A stretch of DNA of 21,173 nt from a virus. The DNA is taken from IMG/VR virus record IMGVR_UViG_3300021960_000630, positions 1 to 21,173 of that record. One strand, given 5' to 3'. Positions 5,602 to 19,387 of the stretch are shown here, one piece after another. The position numbers were made by a program, and so were the translations under genes. Every line of letters starts with the position of its first letter. Positions within the stretch are counted from its first letter, which is position 1. The notes beneath the pieces are model-generated. The model searched no databases. It was not told the origin of the DNA and saw only the letters and a list, made by a program, of their open reading frames with translations.

Positions 5602-5638
5602 AAAAATACACCACTATTTACAAAAGTATGTATATAAT
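5602..5638 (+). promoter_or_regulatory. Promoter of the inserted cassette (copy 1)
   Basis: TATAAT at 5633-5638 is preceded by AAAAGTATG. The 37 bases ending at this -10 box match 19321-19357 at 30 positions without gaps, so this is a repeated promoter. An A/T-rich tract (5588-5608) could act as an UP element. There is no good -35 at 17 bp. The conserved ACACCA block lies about 22 bp upstream of the -10, so recognition may depend on TATG plus TATAAT or on a phage factor. The -10 lies 33 bases before the ATG at 5672. Confidence 0.75.
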
Positions 5639-5653
5639 GGTTACATAAGATAA

Positions 5654-5668
5654 ATACTTGGGAGGTAT
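5654..5668 (+). promoter_or_regulatory. Leader dyad motif containing the ribosome-binding site, forward copy 1
   Basis: ATACTTGGGAGGTAT. AATAC and GTATT arms can form a five-base-pair hairpin whose loop carries TTGGGAG, so part of the GGGAGG Shine-Dalgarno site for the gene at 5672 would be displayed in a loop. Eleven bases (ATACTTGGGAG) are exactly complementary to CTCCCAAGTAT at 6279-6289, at the 3' end of the same transcript. A near copy is at 19374 before the downstream operon. Confidence 0.7.
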
Positions 5669-5671
5669 TAA

Positions 5672-5971
5672 ATGAGTAAAAATACAGGTTGGTTTAAAAG
5701 CGAAGTTGTAGATCTAAGAAATTCTAATGTTGAATTAGATAATAATTTTAGTTGTATCTTCGGTAACAAAACTCACGTAGAAGATTTTATCGGTGGTAAA
5801 GCTACTTTTAAAATTACTTTTTTTGGAAACGAAACTAACTGCTCAACAACTTTTAGATTTCCTAAAGGTTGGACTATTAAAAAAATGTTGGAAACCGGTT
5901 TAAACGAATTAGGTTTCGAAACTACAAGACACGAAATACTCGATTGGGTACAAGTTAAGGGGGTAAAATAA
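5672..5971 (+). CDS. Cassette protein of unknown function (99 aa)
   Basis: First gene after the cassette promoter, with GGGAGG six bases before the ATG. No signal peptide or membrane segment. Residues 43-65 ('KATFKITFFGNETNCSTTFRF') read as paired beta strands, followed by 'PKGWTIKKMLETGLNELGFETTRHEILDWV', a predicted helix. This suggests a small alpha/beta domain. I do not recognise the family. It overlaps the next gene by one base (TAATG) and is expected to be made with it. The promoter-gene-gene-terminator layout inside the tail operon is that of a moron, so a role in host takeover, superinfection exclusion or counter-defence is a reasonable guess only. Confidence 0.75.
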   Translation: MSKNTGWFKSEVVDLRNSNVELDNNFSCIFGNKTHVEDFIGGKATFKITFFGNETNCSTTFRFPKGWTIKKMLETGLNELGFETTRHEILDWVQVKGVK

Positions 5972-6276
5972 TGAAAGAAAGCGCTAGTTATTTATTAGAC
6001 GATCTAAACTCTATAGATCGTAAATTAAATCGTAGGTTATCTATAGGAAAATATGAAACCTACGAAATTATTGTATTTGGTAAAGGTAAGACCGGTAAAA
6101 GTTACGGTAAGTTTGATTATCAAGACTTTTTAAAATTTGGTTTTAGCCGTAAAAATACTAGAGATCATCTAAGCAAAAAATTTATTAATAAGGATCTAGC
6201 TTATGATTGTTGGAAACTTTTAAATGATCTAGAGCTATATTCTTATGAGTTTGTTTTAAAAACTAATCGTAAATAA
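5971..6276 (+). CDS. Cassette protein of unknown function (101 aa)
   Basis: Begins at ATG behind AAGGGGGTAAAATA, the ribosome signal shared by cassette and downstream-operon genes, and overlaps the previous stop by one base. The N-terminus (1-25) is a charged helix. Residues 31-50 ('YEIIVFGKGKTGKSYGKFDY') contain GxxxxGKS preceded by a hydrophobic strand, which resembles a Walker A loop. The protein is too short for a normal P-loop NTPase and no Walker B is seen. The C-terminal half is Lys/Asp-rich and probably helical. Family unknown. The stop codon abuts the inverted copy of the leader motif at 6276. Confidence 0.75.
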   Translation: MKESASYLLDDLNSIDRKLNRRLSIGKYETYEIIVFGKGKTGKSYGKFDYQDFLKFGFSRKNTRDHLSKKFINKDLAYDCWKLLNDLELYSYEFVLKTNRK

Positions 6277-6289
6277 TACTCCCAAGTAT
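6276..6289 (+). promoter_or_regulatory. Inverted copy of the leader motif before the cassette terminator
   Basis: ATACTCCCAAGTAT is the reverse complement of ATACTTGGGAGTAT, one base shorter than the leader motif at 5654. It begins on the last base of the upstream stop codon. ATACT and AGTAT can form a hairpin with a CCCA loop, or the site can pair with the leader. TACGATA and a terminator follow, as in the sister site at 19239. Confidence 0.7.
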
Positions 6290-6301
6290 ATTACGTACGA
6301 T

Positions 6302-6330
6302 AAAAGCCGGGTTTAATCGCCCGGCTTTTT
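6302..6330 (+). terminator. Intrinsic terminator ending the cassette
   Basis: AAAAGCCGGG (6302-6311) pairs with CCCGGCTTTT (6320-6329) around an eight-base loop and is followed by a T-run, a canonical Rho-independent terminator. The A-run before the stem could also make it act on the other strand. Its stem (GCCGGG/CCCGGC) is the same as at 19264. Lying inside the tail operon, it should stop structural transcription unless this is overcome. Confidence 0.9.
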
Positions 6331-6398
6331 CTATGTCATACTACGCTCTACTAAATTGCTAATACTTACAATAAACTTAGTTAAATAAAGGAGTTAAA

Positions 6399-6806
6399 TT
6401 GGCAAAGTTTGTTTTAACAGACGCTAGCGTAACAATTAATAGCGTGGATCTTAGCGACCACGTTGCAAGCGTTACTCTAGACATAACCGCCGACGAAATA
6501 GAGGAAACCGCTTTTGGGCAAACCTTTAAATCAAGATTGGGCGGCCTTAAAGACGGATCATTAAGTATTGATTTCCACCAAGATTTCGCAGCTAGCGAAG
6601 TGGACGCAACACTATGGCCTCTTCTAGGTACCGTTACAACTTTTGAATTAAAGCCAACAAGTGGCGCAGTATCTTCAACTAACCCGAAATATAGCGGATC
6701 CGTATTGGTTAACCAACACCAACCGGTAGCTAACGGAGTTGGAGAATTGGCTAGCTTTAGTGTTAGCTTTCCTACAAGTGGCACAATAACAAGAGCTACA
6801 AGTTAA
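6399..6806 (+). CDS. Tail-tube (major tail) protein, short paralogue
   Basis: 135 residues from TTG, selected because AAAGGAG at 6387-6393 lies five bases upstream and the protein then starts MAKFVLTD, exactly parallel to MAKYVFTD of the gene at 4604. Shared landmarks are 'VTLDITADE', 'GGLKDGSLSID', a central 'tLwpLLGTVTTFEL' strand, and 'GVGELASFSVSFPTSGTITR'. It lacks the extra C-terminal Ig-like domain of the longer copy. Its position directly before the chaperone genes is the normal place of the major tail protein. Having both copies suggests a mixed tube or a division between main tube and an end ring. Confidence 0.8.
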   Translation: MAKFVLTDASVTINSVDLSDHVASVTLDITADEIEETAFGQTFKSRLGGLKDGSLSIDFHQDFAASEVDATLWPLLGTVTTFELKPTSGAVSSTNPKYSGSVLVNQHQPVANGVGELASFSVSFPTSGTITRATS

Positions 6807-7072
6807 TGTCTAAAATACAGGGGTTACACCAACTCACTCTCGTATTAGAAGACGGTACTAAAAAAGAAGTAACGTTAAGACCCGTAGACTTCGTAGCTTT
6901 AGAGAGAAAATTTGGGCAACGACCGGCAAGCGAGTTAGAAAAATTATCTTTTGAAGAGCTAATGTATTTATGTTGGAGCGCTAGTAAGCGTACCGGCGTA
7001 ACAGACGATTTCGATAAGTGGTTAAATACCGTTGCGACTATTGACGGTTTAGGTGGCGTAGACCCGGAGTAA
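6806..7072 (+). CDS. Tail assembly chaperone, short form (gpG-like)
   Basis: 88 residues, starting on TAATG overlap with the tail-tube gene. 'KIQGLHQLTLVLEDGTKKEVTLRPVDFVALERKF' followed by a helical region with 'SFEELMYLCWSASKRTGVTDDFDKWL' is the typical short chaperone of siphophage tails, resembling lambda gpG in size and position. It binds the tape measure protein during tail assembly. A second reading frame follows without a start codon of its own and is reached by a -1 frameshift near the stop (see 7045-7224), giving a longer GT form. Confidence 0.8.
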   Translation: MSKIQGLHQLTLVLEDGTKKEVTLRPVDFVALERKFGQRPASELEKLSFEELMYLCWSASKRTGVTDDFDKWLNTVATIDGLGGVDPE

Positions 7073-7224
7073 CCGGCGGCTATTATATAGAATTAATAGC
7101 CGAAGTTAGCTTAGCCGCCGGACTAAACCCTATGGAAGTAGCGGAGTTACCGTTACCTATGTTTTTAGCACTACAAAACGCTCTACAAAAAAGAGCCGAG
7201 CAGGAAAAAAAGAGATATGGCTAA
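7045..7224 (+). CDS. Tail chaperone frameshift extension (gpGT C-terminal part)
   Basis: The -1 frame relative to the chaperone gene is open from 7045 to TAA at 7222-7224. The coding part beyond the G stop reads TGGYYIELIAEVSLAAGLNP and then MEVAELPLPMFLALQNALQK plus a basic RAEQEKKRYG tail. There is no usable start codon until an internal ATG at 7132, so it is best explained as the T domain of a G-T fusion made by programmed frameshifting, as known for siphophage tail chaperones. The likely slip region is 7045-7072; a shift at CCG (7064-7066) would give ...VDPGVTGGYY. No classical X-XXY-YYZ heptamer is present. The end overlaps the next gene. Confidence 0.75.
   Translation, partial: RFRWRRPGVTGGYYIELIAEVSLAAGLNPMEVAELPLPMFLALQNALQKRAEQEKKRYG
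7073..7121 (+). promoter_or_regulatory. RNA structure downstream of the frameshift region
   Basis: CCGGCGGCTA (7073-7082) is exactly complementary to TAGCCGCCGG (7112-7121). Overlapping it, CGGCTATTA (7077-7085) is exactly complementary to TAATAGCCG (7094-7102). The two helices share 7077-7082 and so exclude each other. Both begin within a few bases of the G stop codon, the distance expected of a frameshift stimulator. The region is also coding for the T domain. Confidence 0.7.
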
Positions 7225-7810
7225 TATAAAGAAAACTACAAGCGGTAGCGGTATAGCAGTTGAGGGACTTAACGATACTATTAAGGGCTTACGTGATCTA
7301 TCGCAGGGTAGCGAAGTTAAGAAGTCTTTAAGAGCTTTACATAAAGATATATCTAAAGAAGTAGAGAGCCAAACAAGAATAGAGGCTTTAAAACAGAGTG
7401 TACAGGGACGCCCGGTACCTAAAAGAACGCAGGGAGCAAAAGGTTACGTCGGTGGAGGTACGGATCGTAGCGCTTATTTAGATATTAGACGTACTAATAA
7501 ATTTGTACGTAACTTAGAGTTTGGTAGAGATTATCAATTTTTAAATTTTTATAATAGATCACAAGCTAAAGGAAGATCCGTTAGTGCTAATGCAACCGGT
7601 ATATTTTTTCCGGCTAGCGAACTTAAAAGAAGAGTTTATAAAAAGTGGGTAGGTAATAAATGGAGAAGTACCGGAGTATTTCCGGAGGGTATTAAAACTC
7701 ACGGTTACGTAGCGGAGCCAACAATAGCTAAAGCAGTACCAAGAATTACAGAAGATTATAGCGACCGTATGTTTGATACAGTTAAAAAAGCAATTAAGGA
7801 AAATAAATAA
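7217..7810 (+). CDS. gp10-like tail protein (probable)
   Basis: 197 residues, basic. 'AVEGLNDTIKGLRDL' at the start, a Lys-rich helix with 'KDISKEVESQTRIEAL', then 'VPKRTQGAKGYVGGG', 'NLEFGRDYQ', 'FFPASELKRRVYKKW', and a final 'GYVAEPTIAKAVPRITEDYSDRMFDTVKKAI' follow the plan of HK97 gp10-like proteins (N-terminal 'v.Gl..l...L', central 'EFG', C-terminal 'P.l......i'). Those usually lie in the neck gene block, so its place between chaperone and tape measure is unusual. Translation begins inside the T-domain end and ends in TAATG with the tape measure gene. The family call is moderate; it could be another minor tail protein. Confidence 0.5.
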   Translation: MANIKKTTSGSGIAVEGLNDTIKGLRDLSQGSEVKKSLRALHKDISKEVESQTRIEALKQSVQGRPVPKRTQGAKGYVGGGTDRSAYLDIRRTNKFVRNLEFGRDYQFLNFYNRSQAKGRSVSANATGIFFPASELKRRVYKKWVGNKWRSTGVFPEGIKTHGYVAEPTIAKAVPRITEDYSDRMFDTVKKAIKENK

Positions 7811-10014
7811 TGGCCGAAAGTACAAAAACGTTAAGGTTTGAATTTTTAGCAGATACTAAAAAGTTTTTAGGCAATATAGGGCAAGTAGGTAGCAAGTTTG
7901 GCGATCTAGGCGCCGAAATGAAGAAAACCGGCGATACAGTTAATAAGATCTTCGCAGGTATAGGCGTAGCAGCAGGAGCAACCGCCGCTAAATCTATAAC
8001 CGCCTTTAGAGATTTCGAAACCGGTATGAACGAAGTATTTACGTTGTTACCGGGTACAAGCCAAGAAACTTTCGACCAAATAAATAAAGATGTTTTAAAA
8101 CTATCCAAAGAGATCGGTAAATTACCGGAAGATGTTATACCCGCTTTATACGATAGCTTGTCGGCCGGTGTACCACCGGACAACGTATTTACTTTCCTAG
8201 AAGTAGCTAATAAATTAGCCGTAGGTGGAGCAACAGAGTTAGGGATAGCAGTAGACGGCTTAACTACAGTAGTAAACGCTTTTGGTAGCGACGTTATTAG
8301 CGTAGGCGAGGCTAGCGATATTATCTTTACTGCGGTAAAAGGTGGTAAAACAACAGTAGAGCAATTATCTAAAGCTATGTTTAACGTAGCGCCTATTGCT
8401 GCGTCTATGGGTATTGAGTTTGGTAATGTTACTGCCGCAGTTGCAACACTAACCGCCTCCGGTACTCCAACAAGCGTAGCTATGACGCAGATTAGAGCAG
8501 CACTTAGCGAATTAGCTAAACCAACTACCAAGATCTCATTATTATTTAAAGAATTAACCGGCAAGTCTTTTGAAGAATTTATAGCCGGTGGTGGAGATCT
8601 TAAAGAGGGTTTCGATATTATTGCTAAGGGAGCAAAAGATAGCGGTAGGCCGTTAGCCGATTATGTTGGATCCGTAGAGGCTTTAGGCGCAATACAAACA
8701 CTTACCGGTAAAGGTAGCGAGAAGTTTGCTAGTGAAATATTAGCCGCAGAAAACGCAATAGGAGCAACCGACGCAGCTTTTGAGCAGGGATCGCAGGGTA
8801 TAGGATTAGTTTTAGAGAAATTAAAAGCAGCGTTTCAAGTTTTTCAAATAGAGATCGGCCAAAAATTAGCTCCAATATTGATCGACGCAATAGATAATAT
8901 ACAGAAAAAATTTAAAGAGATCCAACCGGGATTACAGGCTTTCGTAGAAAACGTTAAATCTTTTTTTACAAGTGATGAAGTACAAAACACTATTAAAAGA
9001 CTTACTAAGGCTTTTAATGATCTAGGAGATAGATTAAGACCGGTATTTGAGAGAGTACAAAAGTTTTTCGAGCAAAACCCTAAAGTATTATTTACAGGTT
9101 TAGCAGTAGTTATAGGTGGAATACTTCTAGCTAGTGTTATATCTTTAGCTAGTGCTTTCGCTGCACTATTTAGCCCGGTTACGATCATACTTGGATTAAT
9201 TGCCGCTTTAGCAGGTGGGTTTAGATATGCTTATGATAACTTCGAGGGATTTAGAAATTTCGTAGATAATGGTATAGCTTTCCTTAAAAATTTGTTTAAT
9301 AATTTTATAACTTTCTTTAAGGGCGACGGTTTCCAAAACGGTATGACTAAGGCTTTTGAATTTGTTAAAACTCAATTTAAGTTATTACAAGTTGTATTCG
9401 ACGGAGTAGTACAGTTTATAAAAGGTTTATTTAGTGGAGATGTAGCAGAGGCAGTAGGCGGACTTAAAAAAATATTCTTAGGTTTACTTAACTTTTTCAA
9501 AAATAATTTTAATTTAATGGAAACTCTTAAAGATGTATTTATAGGAGCTTTAACTAAAGCTAAGGATTTTATTTGGCCTAAGATCAAAGAATTTGGCGAG
9601 GGTTTTATGGAAACTATGAAAACAGTACTTAAAACCGGAGCAGGAGTTGTATTAGAGGGTGTTAAGTATGTATTTAATAAAGTTATAGATAAGATCAACG
9701 ATTTTATTAATAAACTAAACGACGGGTTAGGATTTAGCTTTTTTGGTATAGACATAGACCCGCCGGATATACCAAATATACCGAGGTTGGCTAAAGGTGG
9801 TATCGTAACCAAGCCTACTACCGCCGTAGTTGGCGAGGCAGGGGCAGAGGCTATAATACCTTTATCGTCGAGAGTTGGCGACGGACTTGGCCTAGGAAAA
9901 CAAACATACAACATAACAGTTAACGCCGGGATCGGTACAGACGGAGCAGACGTAGGCCGATTAATCGTTGAACAGATAGAAAAATATAATAGACGTAACC
10001 TAAGGTTTGTATAA
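7810..10014 (+). CDS. Tail tape measure protein
   Basis: 734 residues. The N-terminal third (about 60-300) is a TP901/phage-tail minor protein domain with 'FRDFETGMNEVFTLLPG', 'LPEDVIPALYDSLSAGV' and 'AVATLTASGTPTSVAMTQIRAAL'. Residues 330-425 are helical. Residues 427-470 ('VLFTGLAVVIGGILLASVIS' onward) form two hydrophobic segments that may insert into the host membrane on ejection. Residues 657-690 have 'RLAKGGIVTKPTTAVVGEAG' then 'AEAIIPL', a typical tape measure C-terminal motif. At about 0.15 nm per residue the tail would be near 110 nm, a rule-of-thumb inference. It is flanked by TAATG overlaps on both sides. Confidence 0.92.
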   Translation: MAESTKTLRFEFLADTKKFLGNIGQVGSKFGDLGAEMKKTGDTVNKIFAGIGVAAGATAAKSITAFRDFETGMNEVFTLLPGTSQETFDQINKDVLKLSKEIGKLPEDVIPALYDSLSAGVPPDNVFTFLEVANKLAVGGATELGIAVDGLTTVVNAFGSDVISVGEASDIIFTAVKGGKTTVEQLSKAMFNVAPIAASMGIEFGNVTAAVATLTASGTPTSVAMTQIRAALSELAKPTTKISLLFKELTGKSFEEFIAGGGDLKEGFDIIAKGAKDSGRPLADYVGSVEALGAIQTLTGKGSEKFASEILAAENAIGATDAAFEQGSQGIGLVLEKLKAAFQVFQIEIGQKLAPILIDAIDNIQKKFKEIQPGLQAFVENVKSFFTSDEVQNTIKRLTKAFNDLGDRLRPVFERVQKFFEQNPKVLFTGLAVVIGGILLASVISLASAFAALFSPVTIILGLIAALAGGFRYAYDNFEGFRNFVDNGIAFLKNLFNNFITFFKGDGFQNGMTKAFEFVKTQFKLLQVVFDGVVQFIKGLFSGDVAEAVGGLKKIFLGLLNFFKNNFNLMETLKDVFIGALTKAKDFIWPKIKEFGEGFMETMKTVLKTGAGVVLEGVKYVFNKVIDKINDFINKLNDGLGFSFFGIDIDPPDIPNIPRLAKGGIVTKPTTAVVGEAGAEAIIPLSSRVGDGLGLGKQTYNITVNAGIGTDGADVGRLIVEQIEKYNRRNLRFV

Positions 10015-11246
10015 TGGCTCAACCTACGGTAAGAGTTAGGCTAGGTTTTACTCCAAATACCTTTACTTTAGATGATCTAGTTAGAGGTATTTTAGATACC
10101 GGGCAATTAGGCGGAGCAGTAACTTTAACAGATGTTACCGCAGACGTACAGAATATAGCTATAAGTCGTGGTAGATCTAAAGATTTAGATAGCTTTTTTA
10201 CCGGTAGTTGTGCAATTAAATTATTAAATAACTCTAGAAAATACGAAAATACTAATACGAGTAGCCCTTATTATCCCGGTATTGAGCCTTTTATTATTAT
10301 GCACGTCGACGCTACTACCGACGGCGGATCTACTTACGAAGATCTATTCGTAGGTTTCGTAGCAGATATTGCCTTAACTTATCCGGATAGTAATAACTCT
10401 TTTGCTACTTTTACCGGTTTCGACGCTTTTATGAAGATTAATAACACCGAATTAGTTAACGCTAGTTTTTCAAGTACAGATAGCGGAACTATGATCGGTA
10501 ATATTTTAGATAATGCTAGCGTTAAATTTAGTACGGCAAATAGAGATATTGAAACCGGAGTAAGCACTATGCAAGCTCTTAGCGGTATTACGGATAATAC
10601 ATTAAGTTTATTACAAACTATAGAACGTAGCGAAAATGGATTATTATTTATGTCTAAAAGCGGTAAATTAACTTTTAAAAATAGACATACTACTTATCCT
10701 AGTGTTGTTAGTAAAACTTTTAGCGATGACGGTAGCGATATTGCATATACTAAAGTCGATTATATAAACGATGATAACGAAATTTACAATATTATTAACT
10801 TAACTCGTGAGGGTGGATCTACTCAAACACAACAAGACGCAGGATCACAACTTAAATATTTGATCCGTACATTAACTAGATCCGGTTTATTAAACGATAA
10901 TGATACAGAAGTTAACGACGCTGCTTTATATCTTTTAGGTAAATTTAAAGACGCTTTATTACGTTTTGATAATTTAGAGGTTAATGTTAATGATCTAAGT
11001 ACTTCTAATCAAAATTTAATTTTAGAGAGTGAAGTAGGAGATATTGTAAGCGTTGAGCTTACACCTCCGGGAAGTGGTAGCCCGGCTCAAATAATAAGCC
11101 GTGAGATCTTAGACGCTATAAACTACAGTATTACACCCGATACCTTTAAAGTAGGATATAAATTAAGTAGCGCTAACCAACAAGCGTTTTTACGTTTAGA
11201 TAATACTTTATTTGGACATCTAGACGATGATAAGTTAGGTTACTAA
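10014..11246 (+). CDS. Tail tip / baseplate hub protein (minor tail)
   Basis: 410 residues directly after the tape measure gene with a one-base overlap. The N-terminal part ('DVTADVQNIAISRGRSKDLDSFFTGSCAIKLLNNSRKY' through 'EDLFVGFVADIALTYPD') matches minor tail proteins of actinobacterial phages, in which 'V...v..i....GR...ld....G...i.l.N..r...p' is followed by 'lf.G.v...'. The second half contains 'TLLQTIERSENGLLFMSKSG'-like text ('LSLLQTIERSENGLLFMSKS') and a C-terminal 'SREILDAINYSITPDTFKVGYKL'. Such proteins form the tail tip ring or hub that carries receptor-binding proteins. No peptidase or lysozyme motif is visible. Confidence 0.65.
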   Translation: MAQPTVRVRLGFTPNTFTLDDLVRGILDTGQLGGAVTLTDVTADVQNIAISRGRSKDLDSFFTGSCAIKLLNNSRKYENTNTSSPYYPGIEPFIIMHVDATTDGGSTYEDLFVGFVADIALTYPDSNNSFATFTGFDAFMKINNTELVNASFSSTDSGTMIGNILDNASVKFSTANRDIETGVSTMQALSGITDNTLSLLQTIERSENGLLFMSKSGKLTFKNRHTTYPSVVSKTFSDDGSDIAYTKVDYINDDNEIYNIINLTREGGSTQTQQDAGSQLKYLIRTLTRSGLLNDNDTEVNDAALYLLGKFKDALLRFDNLEVNVNDLSTSNQNLILESEVGDIVSVELTPPGSGSPAQIISREILDAINYSITPDTFKVGYKLSSANQQAFLRLDNTLFGHLDDDKLGY

Positions 11247-11291
11247 TGACATATAGCTATAAAAAACAACAAGAAAGGATAAACTAAAACT

Positions 11292-13149: not shown

Positions 13150-13155
13150 GAAAAT

Positions 13156-14214
13156 ATGAGCAGAATTAATACAAATACAATAGCAACAAGCGACGGAAAT
13201 AATGTAGCTTTAGATAGTGCTTTAAATTTAAAAAGTTATACTACTACACAACGTAACGCCTTAACTTCAACTGCGGGAGATATGATCTACAATACTACCG
13301 ATAATAAAGTACAAACATATAACGGTAGTAGTTGGGACGATTTAGGTAACCCTTTTACCGATATAGATTTTTTAGTTATAGCCGGTGGAGGAGCGGGCGC
13401 TTTTAATGATAACGGCGGAGGTTATGCCTCCGGTGGTGGTGGCGCAGGAGGTTATAGAACTTCTTACGGTACCGGTAACGTTAGCGGAGGTAGTAGCCCG
13501 GTTGAAACTGCTTATAAAGTTTTAGTAGACGGATCTACTACATACACTATTACTATAGGCGCCGGATCTAGTACCTATAGACAACCCGCTAGTAATAGTC
13601 AATTTGCCGATATAATATCTTATGGTGGAGGCTCTAGCGATAGAAACAATAGTTTTAATGGTAACAATGGAGGCTCGGCGTCGGGTGTAACAGGTTTTCC
13701 AAGTAGTAATATAGGTTATGGTTTAGCCGGACAGGGTAGTAATGGTGGCGCCTCGTCAACCGCAGGCGGAGGCGGAGGCGGAGCAGGAGGGGTAGGAGCT
13801 AATGCTACTAGCCAAACTGCACCGGGAGCCGGTGGTACCGGTTTATCTTCATCTATAACAGGATCCGCAGTAGATAGAGCCGGCGGAGGCGGAGGCGGAG
13901 CAGGCGGCACAGGAACAGGAGCAGCAGGAGGCACCGGAGGAGGTGGAGCCGGAGCTAATGGGACTAATAACGCTACAGTTGGTAATACAGGTACCGCAGG
14001 TACAATTAATACCGGCGGAGGCGGAGGCGGTGGATCCGGTGGAACTAGCGCAGGATCAATAGCTAACGGTGGTAGTGGTGTAGTAATTTTAAGATATGCT
14101 ACCGCAGACGCAACTATTTCTATTGGAGCAGGTTTAACAAGTACATCTACTACAGACGGTAGCGACACTATAGTTACTTTTACGGCCGGTACAGATACGG
14201 TAACTTTTAGTTAA
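13156..14214 (+). CDS. Glycine-rich tail adhesin 2
   Basis: 352 residues with the same plan as adhesin 1: shared module (1-60), 'DIDFLVIAGGGAGAFND', a strand block 'YTITIGAGSSTYRQPASNSQ', long Gly-rich part, 'GGSGVVILRYA', and a 29-residue tail close to that of adhesin 1 ('GAGLTSTSTTDGSDTIVTFT'). The Gly-rich middle is not alignable run by run with adhesin 1, so the two probably recognise different targets or are diverging. AGGA overlapping the previous stop serves as ribosome site. GGCGGA tandem triplets at 13765, 13882 and 14014 are possible recombination points. Confidence 0.82.
   Translation: MSRINTNTIATSDGNNVALDSALNLKSYTTTQRNALTSTAGDMIYNTTDNKVQTYNGSSWDDLGNPFTDIDFLVIAGGGAGAFNDNGGGYASGGGGAGGYRTSYGTGNVSGGSSPVETAYKVLVDGSTTYTITIGAGSSTYRQPASNSQFADIISYGGGSSDRNNSFNGNNGGSASGVTGFPSSNIGYGLAGQGSNGGASSTAGGGGGGAGGVGANATSQTAPGAGGTGLSSSITGSAVDRAGGGGGGAGGTGTGAAGGTGGGGAGANGTNNATVGNTGTAGTINTGGGGGGGSGGTSAGSIANGGSGVVILRYATADATISIGAGLTSTSTTDGSDTIVTFTAGTDTVTFS
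13765..14031 (+). repeat. GC-rich GGCGGA tandem triplets inside adhesin 2
   Basis: Three consecutive GGCGGA units followed by GCAGG occur at 13765-13787 and again at 13882-13904. A third near copy is at 14014-14031 (ending GGCGGT). Spacing is 117 and 132 bases, both multiples of three, so unequal exchange would keep the reading frame. They encode runs of glycine. Confidence 0.8.
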
Positions 14215-14248
14215 TATGAAAATTTATAATATTATTAAGTTAATAAAC

Positions 14249-14271
14249 ATACCTAACATAATGTTAGGTAT
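14249..14271 (+). promoter_or_regulatory. Perfect 23-base palindrome between adhesin 2 and the next gene
   Basis: ATACCTAACAT (14249-14259) and ATGTTAGGTAT (14261-14271) are exact reverse complements around one central A. It lies 24 bases upstream of AAGGAG (about 14295-14300). A possible -10 (TATAAT, 14225-14230) is upstream. It could be a protein operator or an RNA hairpin. A T-run (about 14284-14289) follows only after 12 bases, so a standard terminator is unlikely. Confidence 0.65.
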
Positions 14272-14307
14272 TAGTGGTAAAATGTTTTTTAATAAGGAGA
14301 AATAAAT

Positions 14308-14700
14308 ATGGCTCATTATGCACTATTAGATGAAAACAATATAGTAACAGAAGTAATAACAGGTAAAGACGAAGACGATTTAGATACTTTACCGGAGGGT
14401 TTTTCTAGTTGGGAAGATTACTACGGTAATTTTAGAAATATGACTTGTAAAAGAACTTCTTATAATACTATTGCTAACGCTCATACTTTAGACGGTGTAG
14501 CTTTTAGAGGTAACTTCGCCGGGATCGGTTATAACTATGACGAAACTAATGATATATTTTTACCGCCTAAACCTTTTGATAGTTGGGTTTTAGATCTAGA
14601 TATAGCTAATTATGTAGCACCCGTACCATACCCGGAAGACGGATTAGGTTACGAGTGGAACGAAGTTACTATGAGTTGGGATTTAATAGAAGATGTCTAG
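14308..14700 (+). CDS. Conserved environmental-phage fibre-region protein
   Basis: 130 residues. It begins 'MAHYALLDENNIVTEVITGKDED' and has 'TSYNT', 'FRGNFAGIGYNYDETNDIFLP' (67-87), 'PKPFDSWVLD' and 'PVPYPEDGLGYEWNEVTMSW'. I know this pattern well from cyanophages and other marine phages, where it is encoded among fibre genes and is of unproven function, possibly a fibre-associated or baseplate accessory protein. AAGGAG lies nine bases before the start. It overlaps the next gene by eight bases. It is the first gene after the palindrome and may be the start of a separately controlled transcript. Confidence 0.75.
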   Translation: MAHYALLDENNIVTEVITGKDEDDLDTLPEGFSSWEDYYGNFRNMTCKRTSYNTIANAHTLDGVAFRGNFAGIGYNYDETNDIFLPPKPFDSWVLDLDIANYVAPVPYPEDGLGYEWNEVTMSWDLIEDV

Positions 14701-15349
14701 TATTGTAAGAGTAGATACTATAAACGAAAAAACTACGGCTAATGGAGTTACCGTTGACGGCGTTTTAATTAAAGACGGAGCTATAGCAAGTAGTTATATA
14801 AGTGGTTTAAGTGATAATAACGATTTTGTTTTATTATCTAGTGCTACCGCTAGCGCTAGTAGTGAATTGTTATTCGATAATTTTGTAGATACTTCGACTT
14901 ATTCTTATTATCGAATAGTTACAGAAAATATAATACCGGCTACTACAAGTACTAATTTATATATGACTTTTAGGCAGGGTGGAGCTAGTGGTAGCGATTT
15001 AACGGGAAATTATTACGGCGCAGCTTGGCAAGCCTCTTTAAATACTGCGTCATCGGGTTTTGATGTTAATTTTATACAAGCAGGTTACGGACAAATAGGA
15101 GATCAAATACAGAATAGCGCAGGAAGAGCGCATAATGGTACAGTAGAATTTTACCCAAGCGACGGTACAAATAACGGTACTTATATTTCGGCTAATTTTG
15201 TACATTATACAAGTCTTGGAACGATGAGAAGTAGGCATAGATCACATTATTTAGATAGTAATACCGCAGTTACAGGGGCTAGGTTTTATATGTCTAGTGG
15301 CAATATTACAAGCGGATCTATACATATTTATGGGATTAAAAAAGTATAA
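14693..15349 (+). CDS. Tail fibre / receptor-region structural protein
   Basis: 218 residues. The N-terminus 'IVRVDTINEKTTANGVTVDG' followed by 'VLIKDGAI' (residues 4-31) is a segment common in fibre and virion structural proteins of marine phages. The rest is a Ser/Thr/Tyr-rich all-beta domain with 'LLFDNFVDTSTYSYYRIVTE', 'LYMTFRQGGASGSDL', and a C-terminal 'SSGNITSGSIHIYGIKKV', the last resembling a galactose-binding-like or capping strand in such fibres. No catalytic motif is seen. It ends in a one-base overlap with the next gene. Confidence 0.7.
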   Translation: MSSIVRVDTINEKTTANGVTVDGVLIKDGAIASSYISGLSDNNDFVLLSSATASASSELLFDNFVDTSTYSYYRIVTENIIPATTSTNLYMTFRQGGASGSDLTGNYYGAAWQASLNTASSGFDVNFIQAGYGQIGDQIQNSAGRAHNGTVEFYPSDGTNNGTYISANFVHYTSLGTMRSRHRSHYLDSNTAVTGARFYMSSGNITSGSIHIYGIKKV

Positions 15350-15639
15350 TGGCACAAACACTAGAAGAAATTAAATCAAGTTTTGAGGCACCAACTCATA
15401 AAATAGTTAACGGTGTTAAAGTAGATTTAACCCCTAAAGAAATAGAAGATACTTTAACTATTTGGGCGGAAAATGAATTAGCTAGACAATTAGACGAAGA
15501 AAATAACGGATATAAATACAATAGAGCTAATGAGTACCCACCTTTACAAGAGCAATTAGATTATATTTTTCATCACGGACTAGAGGCGTGGAAAACGGAT
15601 ATAATACAACCCGTAAAAGACGCTTACCCTAAACCTTAA
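15349..15639 (+). CDS. Small fibre-region protein, possible assembly factor
   Basis: 96 residues, acidic and helical. 'KVDLTPKEIEDTLTIWAENE' and 'NRANEYPPLQEQLDYIFHHG', then 'LEAWKTDIIQPVKDAYPKP', match a small protein found after fibre genes in many environmental phages: a 'R...YP.l..QLD.i.h.G...w...i..vK..yPk' motif. It probably acts in fibre assembly or is a minor virion part, but this has not been shown to my knowledge. It overlaps the upstream gene by one base and its stop is immediately followed by the TTG of the nuclease gene. Confidence 0.65.
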   Translation: MAQTLEEIKSSFEAPTHKIVNGVKVDLTPKEIEDTLTIWAENELARQLDEENNGYKYNRANEYPPLQEQLDYIFHHGLEAWKTDIIQPVKDAYPKP

Positions 15640-15915
15640 TTGACACTACTACAAGATCTACGCTTACAAGCGTTAGAGAGATCCGGGAATAAATGCGAGT
15701 GGCCTAAGTGTACTAATTATGATCAATGGCTAGAAATGGCACATATAACCGGTATTGGTATGGGTGGCCGACATAGTAAAGAGAAATACGATCTAAATAA
15801 TGTAGTTATGTTATGTAAACTACACCACGATATTTACGACGGGCGGACTATATCACTTGCAAAAAAGGAGTGGCGCATACTGCTATTATCTTTTTTAGAA
15901 TATGACCGACAATAA
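15640..15915 (+). CDS. HNH endonuclease
   Basis: 91 residues from TTG at 15640, directly after the previous stop; no clear Shine-Dalgarno is present, so coupling is assumed. Zinc-binding cysteines are C19 and C24 ('NKCEWPKCTN') and C59 with H62 ('LCKLHHD'). The HNH core is 'EMAHITG' (H35), 'LNNVVMLC' (N54) and 'LHHD' (H63). This gives a complete but minimal HNH nuclease of the zinc-ribbon type. HNH proteins of phages often help terminase cut packaging DNA or are homing-type nicking enzymes; here it is far from the terminase, so the role is open. The stop overlaps the next gene by 14 bases. Confidence 0.88.
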   Translation: MTLLQDLRLQALERSGNKCEWPKCTNYDQWLEMAHITGIGMGGRHSKEKYDLNNVVMLCKLHHDIYDGRTISLAKKEWRILLLSFLEYDRQ

Positions 15916-16087
15916 TAATTACACTCAAAAGGAAATGACGGCTAAAATTATGCTCGATATAGAGAAGATCTTTACTAAATTAGACGAACTACAAAAAGAT
16001 ATTAATACGAGGCCAACTAGAGCCGAGATCTACGGTTGGATCATCGCCGGGATTTCTATAGCTACTTTAGCTAATGTATTAATGTGA
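15902..16087 (+). CDS. Small membrane protein, holin-like or lysis accessory
   Basis: 61 residues. Residues 8-36 form an amphipathic charged helix ('KEMTAKIMLDIEKIFTKLDE') and residues 43-60 a single membrane segment ('IYGWIIAGISIATLANVL'). Small proteins with a coiled-coil region and one membrane anchor are frequent in phage lysis regions and may act as holin, antiholin or spanin-like parts. The next gene encodes a second small one with the opposite order (membrane segment first), which suggests a pair. It overlaps the nuclease gene by 14 bases. Confidence 0.65.
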   Translation: MTDNNNYTQKEMTAKIMLDIEKIFTKLDELQKDINTRPTRAEIYGWIIAGISIATLANVLM

Positions 16088-16281
16088 TGAAAATAGATCT
16101 TAAAACTCTTACACCAATTTTAATAACTGCTCTTATAGGAGTTATTGGGTGGTTATTTAATACAATAGAAGAGTTACAAATAGCTCATAGCTCTATGATG
16201 ACGCAACTTCGCATATTAGAAAAAGATTTAGATATGCAAGAAAGTTTATTTAGTGAGCTTTTATTTAAAATTAGCGGATAA
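16087..16281 (+). CDS. Small membrane protein, second of a pair
   Basis: 64 residues from the ATG at 16087, which makes a TGATG overlap with the previous stop; a GTG three bases earlier is also possible. Residues 8-24 are a membrane segment ('LTPILITALIGVIGWLF'), followed by a long helix with heptad pattern (27-62, 'EELQIAHSSMMTQLRILEKD'). A short N-terminal anchor with a coiled coil outside it resembles pinholin-type or antiholin proteins, but no family mark is decisive. With the preceding gene it probably forms a membrane complex in lysis. Confidence 0.65.
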   Translation: MKIDLKTLTPILITALIGVIGWLFNTIEELQIAHSSMMTQLRILEKDLDMQESLFSELLFKISG

Positions 16282-16290
16282 AATAATTTT

Positions 16291-16371
16291 ATGGATTTTC
16301 TATTAGTCATAGTAGTAATAGTAGGTATTAACTATCTTAGTTGGTGGTTAATTAAAAACGATAAAATATAA
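16291..16371 (+). CDS. Tiny single-span membrane peptide
   Basis: 26 residues: MDFLLVIVVIVGINYLSWWL followed by IKNDKI. Nearly the whole peptide is one hydrophobic segment with a charged end, so if translated it is a membrane peptide. It starts nine bases after the previous stop without a strong ribosome site. Its place in the lysis region and the run of similar tiny ORFs after it support a real gene, though at this length chance cannot be ruled out. Confidence 0.45.
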   Translation: MDFLLVIVVIVGINYLSWWLIKNDKI

Positions 16372-16373
16372 TT

Positions 16374-16463
16374 ATGTGCAAGATAGATCAAAAAGAAGAC
16401 GGATCCTATGTACAGATATGTAATTGTAAGTATGGTAGTGAGAATTGCGAAAATTTAAAATAA
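16374..16463 (+). CDS. Tiny Cys-rich peptide
   Basis: 29 residues with Cys at 2, 16, 18 and 25 ('MCKIDQKEDGSYVQICNCKY' then 'GSENCENLK'). Four cysteines in 29 residues could bind one metal ion or form disulphides. It begins two bases after the previous stop and its stop overlaps the next start (TAATG at 16461-16465), the packing usual for real genes in this genome. No known family. Confidence 0.45.
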   Translation: MCKIDQKEDGSYVQICNCKYGSENCENLK

Positions 16464-16606
16464 TGGATTATTTAGTAGGTTTTATATTAGGTTTATTTAT
16501 TAAAGAGATTTGGAATTTTCTTAAAAAACTAGATCAATTTGATAGAGAAAATTTTAGCTTTTTTAACTTCGATTTATTCGATGTTGAAGAAGATGATTTA
16601 CCTTAA
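16463..16606 (+). CDS. Small membrane-anchored acidic protein
   Basis: 47 residues. Residues 3-20 ('YLVGFILGLFIKEIWNFL') form a short membrane segment, followed by an acidic, Phe-rich tail (FSFFNFDLFDVEEDDLP). The start overlaps the preceding stop (TAATG). It ends just before a promoter-like sequence, so it would close the transcript unit of the fibre and first lysis genes. The role is unknown; membrane-bound regulator of lysis or exclusion protein are possibilities only. Confidence 0.5.
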   Translation: MDYLVGFILGLFIKEIWNFLKKLDQFDRENFSFFNFDLFDVEEDDLP

Positions 16607-16633
16607 AACCTTTTAAATGTCTTAACTTTAGTT

Positions 16634-16674
16634 TATAATAGTTACAGTATTGTTAATAGAAACGGGGCTATTAT
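16634..16674 (+). promoter_or_regulatory. Diverged member of the repeated promoter/leader family
   Basis: TATAATAGTTACA (16634-16646) matches TATAATGGTTACA at 5633-5645 at 12 of 13 bases. The -10 lies 35 bases before the ATG at 16675, close to 33 and 32 in the two strong copies. The leader ends GGGGCTATTATATG, against TTGGGGTATTAAATG at 19378. Upstream of the -10 there is no similarity, and the ATACTT arm of the dyad is absent. Confidence 0.45.
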
Positions 16675-16947
16675 ATGTCAAATTTAACTCTAGATGAGTT
16701 TGCTTTAGGTAAAATAAATTATAAAAGTAAAAGAAAATTCGAAAACAGATACCCAAAAGAAACAGAAATTATAATTAATTTATTAAAACAAGCTCTAATA
16801 AGAAAAAACGAAACTCAACTAAGCGTATATAGTTATAAAACTATAGCCGAGTATTGTATAGAAGTTTTAAATTTCAATATGGTACATAGTGAGAGTTTAC
16901 GTAAAATTATAAGTCGTATTGCGCAGGATAACGGTTGTGAGTTATGA
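16675..16947 (+). CDS. Small protein with probable helix-turn-helix
   Basis: 90 residues, basic N-terminus (KINYKSKRKFENRY). Residues 55-82 ('KTIAEYCIEVLNFNMVHSES' then 'LRKIIS') fit a helix-turn-helix: helix, short turn, recognition-like helix. It overlaps the phosphoesterase gene by four bases (ATGA at 16944-16947). It may be a DNA-binding partner of that enzyme, or a transcription factor. I recall actinophage phosphoesterases with a DNA-binding N-terminus, so these two genes could be a split version, but that is inference. It is the first gene after the 16634 promoter-like site. Confidence 0.6.
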   Translation: MSNLTLDEFALGKINYKSKRKFENRYPKETEIIINLLKQALIRKNETQLSVYSYKTIAEYCIEVLNFNMVHSESLRKIISRIAQDNGCEL

Positions 16948-18155
16948 ATTTAGACGAATTTGTAGAGAGCAGAAAAGACGTACCTACTACTAACGGAAAG
17001 AAGATCAAGCCCTCTAGCGATTGGACGCCGGGTATTGAAATGCTTGGATCTAAAGGTACGATCACAACTAAAGCTATACCTAAAGGTAACCCTAATTGGA
17101 ACGAGTGGATAGATTATTGGTTAGGCGACGGATCTAGTAAAGATTTCTACGTTAGAGAAGATGAGCCGGTTAACTTTAGAACTTGGCAGGGTTGGGGAGA
17201 AAACGGGATCCAAAACTTTTATTATTTTAAAGCTAATATCTATGCAAGAAAAAATAATAAATATGATGATAAAGAATTAAATAAACTTATTAGCGACGCT
17301 AAGAAAAAACCACCTAAGCCTAAAACTAAAACTAAAAATAAAAAGGCTCTAGTTATTTGTATGAGTGATTGGCAAGTAGGTAAAGAGGGGAGCGAAAATA
17401 TGCTTAAAAGATATTACGCAAGCCTAGACGCTATAGATAATCAAATAAAATTCTTAAAGAAAAAACATAAAGATCTAGATAAATTAATTATTGTTGGGTT
17501 AGCCGATCTCGTCGAGGGTTGTAGTGGGTTTTATCCTATGCAACAATTTACAACAGTATTAGACGAGCGCCAACAAAAGACACTAGCTAGACGTATGTTA
17601 TTAGACGCTTTTAATAAATATAGCGATCAATTTAACGAGGTACTCGGCCTATGTTGTGCGGGTAACCACGGAGAAAAAAGAATAGGTACAAAAGCCTATA
17701 CAACTTTTGGGGATAATAAAGATTTAGAATTATTTGACGAAGTAGCGCAGATATTAAAAGCGGATCCTAGCAAAAAACACGTTAAATTTACGATCCCGGA
17801 TAATGATTTAGCTTATAGCGTTGAAGTCTTACCCGATGTAGTACTTACAATAGCTCACGGCCACCAAGCTAAACGAGGAACGACACCGGCAGCTAGAGTA
17901 GAGAATTGGTTTAATAAAATGGCTAGTAAGCCCTCTAGAGGTGGTTTTTATGCTACTAATGTTTTATTAGTAGGCCATTACCACCACTTTTGGAGTAAAG
18001 AGAGCGAAAGACTTTTACTCGGAGCGCCTACGATCGACGACGGGAGCCAATGGTTTGAGGAAAGCGGAGGCGATACTAGCGTACCGGGTATATTAACTTT
18101 AGTTTTACATAGTACGAAAAATAAAAGAAAATGGAGTGATATAGAGATATTATGA
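16944..18155 (+). CDS. Calcineurin-like metallophosphoesterase
   Basis: 403 residues. Residues 1-120 are an N-terminal domain with many aromatic residues ('PNWNEWIDYWLG', 'FRTWQGWGENGIQNFYYFKA'), then a basic linker (120-134). The catalytic domain has metal-binding motifs in order: 'MSDWQVGK' (D142), 'GLADLVEGC' (D188), 'GNHGEKR' (N241, H242), 'AHGH' (H305, H307) and 'GHYHH' (H345, H347). The 'DLVEGCSGFYPMQ' stretch is typical of phage members. Substrate is unknown; relatives are DNA nucleases or phosphatases. In motif 2 the usual Gly-Asp is Ala-Asp. It lies between small membrane proteins and the endolysin, which is an odd place for such an enzyme, and overlaps both neighbours by four bases. 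Confidence 0.9.
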   Translation: MNLDEFVESRKDVPTTNGKKIKPSSDWTPGIEMLGSKGTITTKAIPKGNPNWNEWIDYWLGDGSSKDFYVREDEPVNFRTWQGWGENGIQNFYYFKANIYARKNNKYDDKELNKLISDAKKKPPKPKTKTKNKKALVICMSDWQVGKEGSENMLKRYYASLDAIDNQIKFLKKKHKDLDKLIIVGLADLVEGCSGFYPMQQFTTVLDERQQKTLARRMLLDAFNKYSDQFNEVLGLCCAGNHGEKRIGTKAYTTFGDNKDLELFDEVAQILKADPSKKHVKFTIPDNDLAYSVEVLPDVVLTIAHGHQAKRGTTPAARVENWFNKMASKPSRGGFYATNVLLVGHYHHFWSKESERLLLGAPTIDDGSQWFEESGGDTSVPGILTLVLHSTKNKRKWSDIEIL

Positions 18156-18928
18156 GTACGAGAAGAGGTAGTAGTAATTGGTACCTAGAAAATTGGGCAA
18201 GTGCCTTAGGTAACGTTGACGATACTATAATTTTAAAATTTAACGGTAAAGGTAGAGCAAGAATTAATAAAGCAGTATTGCCGGCTTTTACCTTATTGAA
18301 TATGTGCTTAGTAGAAGATAACTACATAACGCACAAAAATACAACAGGAGGATATAACTTTAGAAAAATAGCGGGTACAGATAAATATAGTTGCCACGCT
18401 TACGGATTAGCAGTTGATATAAATTGGGATCTAAACCCGGTTACGAGGGACGGATCTACTAAAACTAATTTTAAAGATACAACAATAAAAAAGATTTTAG
18501 GTATAAAGACCCAAGACGGTTTACAAGTATTTAGGTGGGGAGGAGATTATAAAAGTTATAAAGATCCTATGCACTTCGAAATATTTGTAACTCCGCAAGA
18601 ATTAAATAGAGGGATCATAAGAGAGAATTTTGATCAAAAAGAATATATTAAATTAGGTTTATCGGTAAAGCCATTAAAGAAAGGCGATAAAGGCGACGGA
18701 GTTAGATATATTCAAGAGATCTTAAATTTTGTTTTAGATCATAGATTAGTAGCGGACGGAGATTTCGGTAGTTTAACCCAAGCAGCAGTATTAATATTTC
18801 AAAAACAAGCAGGCCTAATAGAAGACGGAATAGTAGGCGCTAATACCTATGCTAAATTAATGGAGTTTAGAACTGCTAAGCTAGAGCAGGAAAGGAATAA
18901 CGATAGTGGCAAATACAGGATCGAATAA
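18152..18928 (+). CDS. Endolysin: M15 D-Ala-D-Ala peptidase with peptidoglycan-binding domain
   Basis: 258 residues. Residues 30-150 are an M15/VanY-type peptidase: 'SCHAYGLAVDINW' supplies zinc ligands H82 and D89, and 'DPMHFE' supplies H141 with E143 close by; 'FRWGGDY' (127-133) lies before it as in the family. It should cut peptide cross-links in cell-wall peptidoglycan. Residues 175-237 are a peptidoglycan-binding domain ('KKGDKGDGVRYIQEIL', 'ADGDFGSLTQAAVLIFQKQA', 'DGIVGANTYAKL'). There is no signal peptide, so export depends on a holin, which is the next gene and overlaps its end. Confidence 0.92.
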   Translation: MSTRRGSSNWYLENWASALGNVDDTIILKFNGKGRARINKAVLPAFTLLNMCLVEDNYITHKNTTGGYNFRKIAGTDKYSCHAYGLAVDINWDLNPVTRDGSTKTNFKDTTIKKILGIKTQDGLQVFRWGGDYKSYKDPMHFEIFVTPQELNRGIIRENFDQKEYIKLGLSVKPLKKGDKGDGVRYIQEILNFVLDHRLVADGDFGSLTQAAVLIFQKQAGLIEDGIVGANTYAKLMEFRTAKLEQERNNDSGKYRIE

Positions 18929-19148
18929 AAAAACACAGAAAAAAGATTGGAAAGCGTATTGGGCTTTTATGCTATCTAAAGCGTTTAGAACGGGCTTACA
19001 AAGTGCTATATCTTTATACTTAGCTAACTCTAGCGGTATTATTGACGCAGATATGGTACAACTTTTGAGCGTTGCCTTTTTAAGCGGTTTTGTTACCGTA
19101 GTGCAACACGCCTTAGAGCAATATAAACCAAAACAAACTTACAATTAA
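18906..19148 (+). CDS. Holin (putative)
   Basis: 80 residues from GTG, with AAAGGA upstream of it. The N-terminus is basic (NKKTQKKDWK), followed by two membrane segments, about 18-42 ('YWAFMLSKAFRTGLQSAISL' onward) and 47-69 ('ADMVQLLSVAFLSGFVTVVQ'), and a charged tail. This size and layout, with 'AfrTglQsais..la' between, is typical of holins next to actinophage endolysins. It overlaps the endolysin gene by 23 bases in another frame. It is the last gene of the structural/lysis region before the terminator at 19264. Confidence 0.78.
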   Translation: MANTGSNKKTQKKDWKAYWAFMLSKAFRTGLQSAISLYLANSSGIIDADMVQLLSVAFLSGFVTVVQHALEQYKPKQTYN

Positions 19149-19238
19149 ATTAGATTTAAAAATATAGAGATACTATATTTAATTAAAGTATTAATTCAAA
19201 GATCGCACCCTTAAATTAATAAATACTAAGACGTAGAA

Positions 19239-19252
19239 ATACCCCCAAGTAT
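19239..19252 (+). promoter_or_regulatory. Inverted copy of the leader motif before the late-region terminator
   Basis: ATACCCCCAAGTAT, the reverse complement of ATACTTGGGGGTAT. It precedes CTACGATA and the GCCGGG terminator, the same order as at 6276. The variable position carries C here, matching G in the leader at 19374, while at the cassette it is T matching A. The rest of the 19149-19389 gap holds only A/T-rich DNA, the terminator and the promoter; no gene is seen. Confidence 0.7.
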
Positions 19253-19263
19253 ACCTACGATAC

Positions 19264-19298
19264 AAAAAAGCCGGGGATCCGCACAACCCGGCTTTTTT
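19264..19298 (+). terminator. Intrinsic terminator after the lysis genes
   Basis: AAAAAAGCCGGG (19264-19275) pairs with CCCGGCTTTTTT (19287-19298) around an 11-base loop, followed by CTTTTT. Strong Rho-independent terminator, with the A-run before the stem making it potentially bidirectional. It separates the structural/lysis transcript from the downstream operon and shares its stem core with the one at 6302. Confidence 0.92.
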
Positions 19299-19320
19299 CT
19301 TTTTATAAAAAAAATATTAA

Positions 19321-19357
19321 AAATTGACACCATTATTTAAAAAAGTATGCCTATAAT
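19321..19357 (+). promoter_or_regulatory. Promoter of the downstream operon (copy 2)
   Basis: TATAAT at 19352-19357 with AAAAGTATG just upstream and TTGACA at 19324-19329. The spacer between them is 22 bases, too long for standard sigma-70 promoters, so TTGACA may be fortuitous. The alignment with 5602-5638 is gapless, 30 of 37 identical, and TTG is among the non-conserved positions. The -10 lies 32 bases before the ATG at 19390. An A-rich tract lies upstream. Confidence 0.8.
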
Positions 19358-19373
19358 ACCTATATAAGAAAAA

Positions 19374-19387
19374 ATACTTGGGGTATT
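19374..19387 (+). promoter_or_regulatory. Leader dyad motif containing the ribosome-binding site, forward copy 2
   Basis: AATAC (from 19373) and GTATT arms flank a TTGGG loop; the GGGG Shine-Dalgarno bases are partly in the loop. The same leader text, TATTAAATGA, follows at both strong copies. The inverted partner at 19239 lies on the other side of the terminator and promoter. Confidence 0.7.

What the first reader, a model, noticed from the sequence alone, without database searches (positions are those of the whole stretch)
5654..19387. Dyad motif at operon starts with its complement at operon ends: possible end-to-end RNA pairing or a stoperator-like system
Seen: ATACTTGGG(AG)GTAT-type sites overlap the ribosome site of the first gene after each strong promoter (5654, 19374). 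Inverted copies sit immediately before both GCCGGG terminators (6276, 19239). For the 5672-6276 transcript the 5' site pairs 11 of 11 bases with the 3' site (5654-5664 with 6279-6289). The variable position changes together at each locus: A with T at the cassette, G with C at 19 kb. In RNA, the leader hairpins show GGG(AG) in the loop and the 3' hairpins show CCC, so a kissing or panhandle contact could hide the ribosome site. As DNA, a dimeric regulator could bind all four, comparable in placement to the stoperators of mycobacteriophage L5-type phages. I know of no described phage system with this exact layout.
Basis: partly seen in the sequence, partly recalled or inferred. Interest (0 to 1): 0.85.

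Follow-up and report, generated by a model that had tools for sequence, protein, structure and literature searches.

The report
Phage mRNA ends that hide start sites
In a family of uncultured marine and estuarine actinobacteria phages, RNA hairpins at the ends of transcription units are complementary to the ribosome-landing sites of a nearby or the same unit, and the two sequences have changed together during evolution, so they probably pair as RNA to switch translation off.

Summary
A motif overlaps the Shine-Dalgarno (SD) of two promoter-proximal genes (5654, 19374), and complementary copies precede two terminators (6276, 19239). Relatives decide between the readings. In eleven lineages at the 19-kb locus the two copies stay complementary over 9-12 nt while the sequence itself changes: TACTTGGG, TTACTTAGG, TTACTAGG and TAGCTTAGG, each with its exact complement. 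Cognate pairs beat swapped pairs (anchored match 9.8 vs 5.5; 0 of 50,000 shuffles). The terminator-side copy sits in a two-tier RNA hairpin whose outer stem is kept while its sequence changes. In 17 different cargo cassettes, full-length transcripts are predicted to pair SD with 3' hairpin (P 0.86-1.0; usually much lower with a shuffled hairpin). RNA pairing is therefore well supported. A dimeric DNA operator or L5-type stoperator is not: several 3' copies lack the dyad, orientations are opposite, there are only 2-5 sites per genome, and no repressor was seen in a near-complete relative. At 19 kb the sites belong to two different units, the end of the lysis operon and the start of the next operon. 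The closest known mechanism is icaR 3'UTR-SD pairing in S. aureus. Function (translational shut-off) is inferred, not shown.

The parts
5586..5653 (+). promoter region of the cassette, TATAAT at 5633-5638; 77% identical repeat of 19305-19373
   Evidence: conserved before different cargo genes in relatives
5654..5668 (+). 5' site ATACTTGGGAGGTAT: leader/Shine-Dalgarno element, weak hairpin involving the SD
   Evidence: pairs with 6279-6289
5672..5971 (+). cassette cargo ORF 1 (99 aa, no PHROGs or Pfam hit)
   Evidence: replaced by other genes in relatives
5971..6276 (+). cassette cargo ORF 2 (101 aa, no PHROGs or Pfam hit); its stop codon lies inside the 3' hairpin
6268..6295 (+). 3' anti-SD hairpin: outer stem 6268-6272/6291-6295 (CGTAA/TTACG), inner stem 6276-6280/6285-6289, loop CCCA
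   Evidence: z -2.8; cognate of 5654-5664
6302..6330 (+). GCCGGG...CCCGGC terminator with T run
   Evidence: sequence; kept in relatives
19232..19259 (+). 3' anti-SD hairpin at the end of the lysis operon: outer stem CGTAG/CTACG, inner stem ATAC/GTAT, loop CCCCCA
   Evidence: z -6.7
19264..19298 (+). GCCGGG terminator of the late (lysis) operon
   Evidence: sequence
19305..19373 (+). promoter region of the next operon, TATAAT at 19352-19357
19374..19386 (+). 5' site ATACTTGGGGTAT over the SD of the first gene of the next operon
   Evidence: pairs with 19243-19252
19390..19746 (+). first ORF of the next operon (118 aa, unknown)
   Evidence: in relative L096 this operon holds a replication initiator

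Best explanation
The 5' and 3' copies are the two sides of a conserved RNA-RNA pairing. The 3' copy is an anti-Shine-Dalgarno hairpin placed in the 3'UTR directly before an intrinsic terminator. It pairs over 9-12 nt with the 5' leader and SD of a matching transcript and blocks ribosome loading, possibly also exposing the duplex to RNase III. In the exchangeable cargo cassette the partner is the SD of the same mRNA, so translation proceeds while the RNA is being made and is shut once the 3' end appears (a self-limiting mRNA). At 19 kb the hairpin ends the late lysis operon and its partner is the leader of the adjacent early/replication operon, so late transcripts, by terminator read-through or in trans, silence the early leader. 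Shown: the elements, their complementarity, co-change, conserved hairpin and thermodynamic preference. Inferred: that pairing occurs in the cell, that its effect is negative, and cis versus trans.
For: Co-change at 19 kb: L093 AGTACTTGGA/TCCAAGTACT, L100/L102 TAGTTACTTAGG/CCTAAGTAACTA, L105 ATTACTTAGG/CCTAAGTAAT, L106 TTATTACTAGG/CCTAGTAATAA, L107 TAGCTTAGGAG/CTCCTAAGCTA. Cognate run 10.4 vs 7.2 swapped, 0 of 20,000; anchored extension upstream of the SD purines, so not explained by SD consensus, 9.8 vs 5.5, 0 of 50,000. Cassette: TACTTGGGAG/CTCCCAAGTA, TACTTAGGGAG/CTCCCTAAGTA, ACTAGGGAGT/ACTCCCTAGT; run 10.1 vs 8.2, p 0.0002. Two-tier 3' hairpin in every lineage, z to -7; closing pair A-U (6272/6291) versus G-C (19236/19255) between the two window copies; GTGAT/ATCAC, GTGAT/ATCGC, GCGAT/ATCGC series in relatives. 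Full-length cassette RNAs with different cargo (313-1147 nt) pair SD with the 3' hairpin, P 0.86-1.0 in 17 of 17; shuffled hairpins mostly much lower. Read-through RNA at 19 kb: P 0.6-1.0 in 8 of 11. Cofold net gain -5.6 to -14.9 kcal/mol. One phage (L092/L093 99.96% identical; L132 from the L092 contig) has two different pairs, each internally matched. Where cargo and leader are missing (L016-L018) the loop CCC is TTTTT.
Against: No RNA or protein data. Imperfect pairs: L031/L032 (one bulge), L085 (A-C mismatch), L096 (9 nt, and no pairing predicted in read-through RNA), L104/L105 weak in read-through folds. With one row per distinct allele the cassette test is weaker (1191 of 50,000). Lineages are related, so shuffles overstate independence. 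Wobble G-U versus A-C mismatches in the stems are 4:4, which does not favour RNA over DNA. The inner stem is also a DNA dyad in several lineages. Equilibrium folds ignore co-transcriptional translation.
Confidence: 0.68

Rival explanations
1. A phage or host DNA-binding protein (operator/stoperator or looping repressor) binds all copies; those at promoters block initiation and those at terminators block elongation or form loops.
For: 5' sites lie close downstream of promoter -10 boxes; several copies are dyads; at 19 kb the two sites flank a promoter; co-change could follow a changing protein. L5-type stoperators are asymmetric sites bound by a monomer (PMC9283540).
Against: 3' copies of L098, L100, L102 lack the second half-site; outer RNA stems are conserved without sequence conservation; two different matched versions in one phage; orientation opposite at starts and ends, whereas L5 sites follow transcription; no repressor or integrase seen among ORFs of a near-complete relative, though small ORFs of unknown function remain; dyad length varies 13-15 nt in the window.
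Confidence: 0.15
2. A trans-acting small RNA (a sub-case of RNA pairing): the hairpin plus terminator is released from, or separately transcribed before, the 3' end of the late operon and silences every motif-bearing leader in the phage, including extra cassettes without their own 3' hairpin.
For: Hairpin followed directly by an intrinsic terminator is sRNA-like; extra cassettes in L096 (16922) and L087 (16796) have the 5' site but no 3' hairpin; weak AT-rich -10-like sequence before the hairpin in L098-L105 (by eye).
Against: Locally matched pairs that differ within one phage and loss of the loop where the local partner is lost (L016-L018) suggest local partners; icaR 3'UTR did not act in trans when expressed ectopically (PMC3868564).
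Confidence: 0.35
3. The shared ends are only recombination handles: cargo cassettes are swapped by homologous exchange at conserved promoter/leader and terminator sequences, and the complementarity is a by-product.
For: Cargo genes differ between relatives while both borders stay; the same cargo gene occurs behind the leader at the tail cassette in L012 and at 19 kb in L085-L088.
Against: Homology of borders predicts conserved left and conserved right borders, not complementarity between left and right that co-changes, nor a conserved hairpin.
Confidence: 0.07
4. Pairing of the ends stabilises or circularises the mRNA and increases rather than decreases expression.
For: 5'-3' closure is predicted to dominate in the cassette RNA.
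Against: The paired bases include the SD itself, in every lineage.
Confidence: 0.08

Closest known systems
icaR 5'UTR-3'UTR base pairing, Staphylococcus aureus (PMC3868564)
   Same: A C-rich motif in the 3'UTR pairs with the SD of the same mRNA; a weak leader structure precedes it; cis circularisation is one of the models discussed
   Different: Here a short hairpin directly before the terminator, repeated at several units of a phage, co-varying through a clade, bracketing exchangeable cargo, and at one locus addressing the neighbouring operon; no functional data here
Start-associated sequences (SAS/ESAS) of cluster K mycobacteriophages (PMC3203893, PMC11373665)
   Same: Short conserved motif overlapping the SD of phage genes, extending beyond what 16S rRNA pairing needs; ESAS carry promoters; actinobacterial hosts
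   Different: Different sequence (GGGATAGGAGCCC), many genes per genome, no complementary copy before terminators described
L5-type stoperators (PMC9283540)
   Same: Short repeated sites at gene starts and between genes of an actinobacteriophage
   Different: More than 20 sites, one orientation relative to transcription, bound by an immunity repressor; here 2-5 sites, opposite orientations, no repressor seen
C-rich-loop regulatory RNAs that target SDs in Gram-positive bacteria, such as RsaE (own knowledge)
   Same: C-rich loop pairing with SD
   Different: Host-encoded, trans-acting and separately transcribed
T4 early read-through RNAs with a sequestered late RBS, such as gene e (own knowledge)
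   Same: RBS hidden in a read-through transcript, free in the transcript from its own promoter
   Different: There a local hairpin; here a complement across the preceding terminator

Membership tests
icaR-type 3'UTR-SD pairing | 3'UTR motif complementary to the SD region of the same mRNA | tested here: met
   Cassette: 11 nt, 5654-5664/6279-6289; 17 of 17 cassette RNAs. At 19 kb the partners are on neighbouring units
icaR-type 3'UTR-SD pairing | Pairing lowers translation and gives an RNase III substrate | not testable with these tools
   needs reporter, toeprint and cleavage assays
icaR-type 3'UTR-SD pairing | Complementarity maintained in evolution | tested here: met
L5-type stoperator system | Many (>20) copies of one 13-bp asymmetric site | tested here: not met
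   4 sites in the window; 5 in the 30.7-kb relative
L5-type stoperator system | Orientation follows the direction of transcription | tested here: not met
   start and end copies are inverted relative to each other in all lineages
L5-type stoperator system | Cognate immunity repressor encoded | tested here: inconclusive
   none recognised in near-complete relative G002, but several small ORFs are unknown
Cluster K SAS | Sequence GGGATAGGAGCCC within 3-9 nt of the start codon | tested here: not met
   position similar, sequence different
Phage trans-acting sRNA | Discrete RNA made of antisense stem-loop plus terminator | tested here: inconclusive
   architecture fits; existence of a separate RNA needs RNA-seq
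Any Rfam family | Match above gathering score | tested here: not met
   0 matches in the window and in L159, L105, L096, L087

The most novel reading that the evidence does not exclude
A phage-wide 'address' system: transcription units end in anti-RBS hairpins that address the leaders of their own cassette and of the next operon, giving self-limiting cargo expression and a late-to-early translational switch. Cargo genes inherit regulation simply by landing between the conserved leader and the conserved 3' hairpin.
Probability: 0.45. Interest if true: 0.78.

Novelty: new variant of a known kind. Interest (0 to 1): 0.64.

Why it matters
Regulatory 5'-3' pairing in bacterial mRNA rests on very few cases, mainly icaR. 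Here a whole phage clade keeps such a pair by compensatory change and couples it to an exchangeable cargo slot, so the idea can be tested by simple swap mutants. It suggests how phages without a recognised repressor may shut off early or cargo genes at the RNA level, and gives a concrete question to put to the unexplained start-associated sequences of mycobacteriophages.

Tried and rejected
Stoperator/dimeric operator reading: see membership test. Wobble test (G-U versus A-C in stems) gave 4:4 and decides nothing. MAFFT alignment of the 3' hairpins misaligned the stems, so stems were compared from individual folds, which selects for pairing. A search of bacterial genomes for the exonuclease found no relative, so the host is inferred only from actinobacteriophage hits and a WhiB-like protein. 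A more distant clade (L124-L130, 43-45% exonuclease identity) lacks the element at its lysis terminator. Anti-SAS hairpin in cluster K: suggestive in K1-like phages but not conserved across the cluster.

Full report
Observation. Two overlap the Shine-Dalgarno (SD) of the first gene after a TATAAT box (5654-5668, 19374-19386) and two lie just before GCCGGG terminators (6276-6289, 19239-19252). The core TACTTGGG/CCCAAGTA occurs nowhere else in the 21 kb. The perfect complementary runs, 11 and 10 nt, are reached by 0 and 1 of 3000 shuffles of the 3' region. Among all RBS regions of the window, the cassette 3' element binds the 5672 and 19390 leaders best. For the 19-kb element the 5672 leader is first and 19390 third, with other SDs close behind, so that element is less discriminating.

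Setting. The window is part of an AT-rich siphovirus-like phage. Its capsid and exonuclease are nearest, in deposited phages, to those of actinobacteriophages, and a relative encodes a WhiB-like protein. The first two copies bracket a cargo cassette between two related tail-protein genes. In relatives the cargo genes differ or are absent while promoter plus leader and hairpin plus terminator remain. One cargo gene appears behind the leader both at this cassette (L012) and at the 19-kb operon (L085-L088). The 19-kb copies lie between the lysis operon (endolysin, holin) and the next operon, which in relative L096 encodes a replication initiator.

Co-change. Eleven lineages at the 19-kb locus and fourteen cassettes were compared. 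At 19 kb the leader and the 3' copy stay complementary although both change: loss or gain of an A (TTAGG versus TTGG), loss of a T (CTTAGG versus CTAGG), TAC to AGC in L107, and the flanking bases up to 12 nt in L100/L102. Mean perfect run is 10.4 nt for true pairs against 7.2 for swapped pairs, with no shuffle of 20,000 reaching it. Counting only matches upstream of the SD purines, where ribosome pairing gives no reason for conservation, the values are 9.8 and 5.5 with 0 of 50,000. The cassette shows the same with less diversity (10.1 versus 8.2, p 0.0002; 1191 of 50,000 on eight distinct alleles with the stricter count). These tests do not correct for relatedness.

RNA rather than DNA. Each 3' copy folds as a two-tier hairpin (outer stem 4-8 bp, inner 3-6 bp, mostly C-rich loop) directly before the terminator, with z-scores from -1.1 to -7.1. 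The outer stem is kept while its sequence changes, for example CGTAG/CTACG, CGTGA/TCACG, AGTGAT/ATCACT, GCGAT/ATCGC, TATGTA/TACATA. Because these stems were read off folds, the 60-of-60 pairing is partly built in. In L098, L100 and L102 the 3' copy has lost the DNA dyad but kept 10-12 nt complementarity to its leader. One phage, seen through contigs 99.96% identical over 9.5 kb, holds two different matched pairs, TTACTTAGGGAG/CTCCCTAAGTAA at the cassette and AGTACTTGGA/TCCAAGTACT at 19 kb. In a lineage without cargo and leader the hairpin remains with loop TTTTT. A single genome-wide DNA-binding protein does not predict these points. The G-U versus A-C count (4:4) is neutral.

Thermodynamics. 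In 17 of 17 full-length cassette RNAs of 313-1147 nt with different cargo, SD and 3' hairpin are predicted to pair with probability 0.86-1.0. Shuffled hairpins gave mostly much lower values, with a few high ones (up to 0.9), presumably because shuffled C-rich sequence can still meet the G-rich leader. In read-through RNA across the 19-kb terminator the pairing is predicted at 0.6-1.0 in 8 of 11 lineages and fails or is weak in L096, L104 and L105.

Mechanism. The most likely reading is translational shut-off by SD occlusion. In the cassette it acts in the same RNA, once its 3' end is made. At 19 kb it acts from the late operon's 3' end on the leader of the next operon, through read-through RNA or in trans. 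Cis versus trans is open: extra cassettes with a leader but no hairpin (L096 16922, L087 16796) favour some trans action, while locally matched pairs favour cis.

Known systems. The mechanism matches icaR in S. aureus, where a UCCCC motif in the 3'UTR pairs with the SD of the same mRNA (PMC3868564). The position matches SAS of cluster K mycobacteriophages, whose role is unknown (PMC3203893, PMC11373665), but the sequence and copy number do not. L5 stoperators are ruled out as a membership on copy number and orientation (PMC9283540); a near-complete relative (G002, 30.7 kb) shows no recognised repressor or integrase among the ORFs examined. Rfam has no match, and the literature searches made here found no described phage system with this layout, within the open-access library held.

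Verdict. Real, RNA-based with good comparative support, function inferred. I rate it a new variant of a known kind.

Noticed in passing
window 5330-6400; L006, L009, L011, L012, L013, L019, L026-L032, L048, L062, L078, L082: Exchangeable cargo slot between two paralogous major-tail-protein genes, 60 nt when empty and up to 1.5 kb when filled; cargo genes are small proteins, the two in the window without a family match.
   Followed up: partly
L012 5744-5940 and L085 5660-5850: The same small gene sits behind the conserved leader at two different genome positions in different phages, so cargo moves between leader-bearing sites.
   Followed up: partly
L096 16861-17340, L087 16700-17260; absent in 98%-identical L095: An extra cassette with promoter and 5' site but no 3' hairpin, inserted before the late operon.
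   Followed up: partly
[quoted passage not shown]
   Followed up: no
L159 140-1100: About 850 nt of apparently non-coding sequence in the cargo slot of a distant relative, no Rfam match; could be a large structured RNA.
   Followed up: partly
L105 17050-17260: About 150 nt non-coding stretch with inverted repeat GGTAGTA/TACTACC and its own terminator before the late operon; no Rfam match.
   Followed up: partly
L541 34845-34905 (Mycobacterium phage Anaya, record 59844-59904); also L549, L550, L543: The single reverse-oriented SAS of K1-type mycobacteriophages lies in the 10-nt loop (CCTCCTATCC) of a strong hairpin in a non-coding region, so it could be an anti-SAS RNA; the loop is not kept in Keshu, Yuna, SirPhilip or LeMond although SAS are.
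   Followed up: partly
L159/L160 just before MTP2: A more distant relative has a hairpin ACGTA-C-AAC-CCCC-GTT-TACGT before its cassette terminator, possibly a diverged anti-SD hairpin; its leader partner was not found.
   Followed up: no
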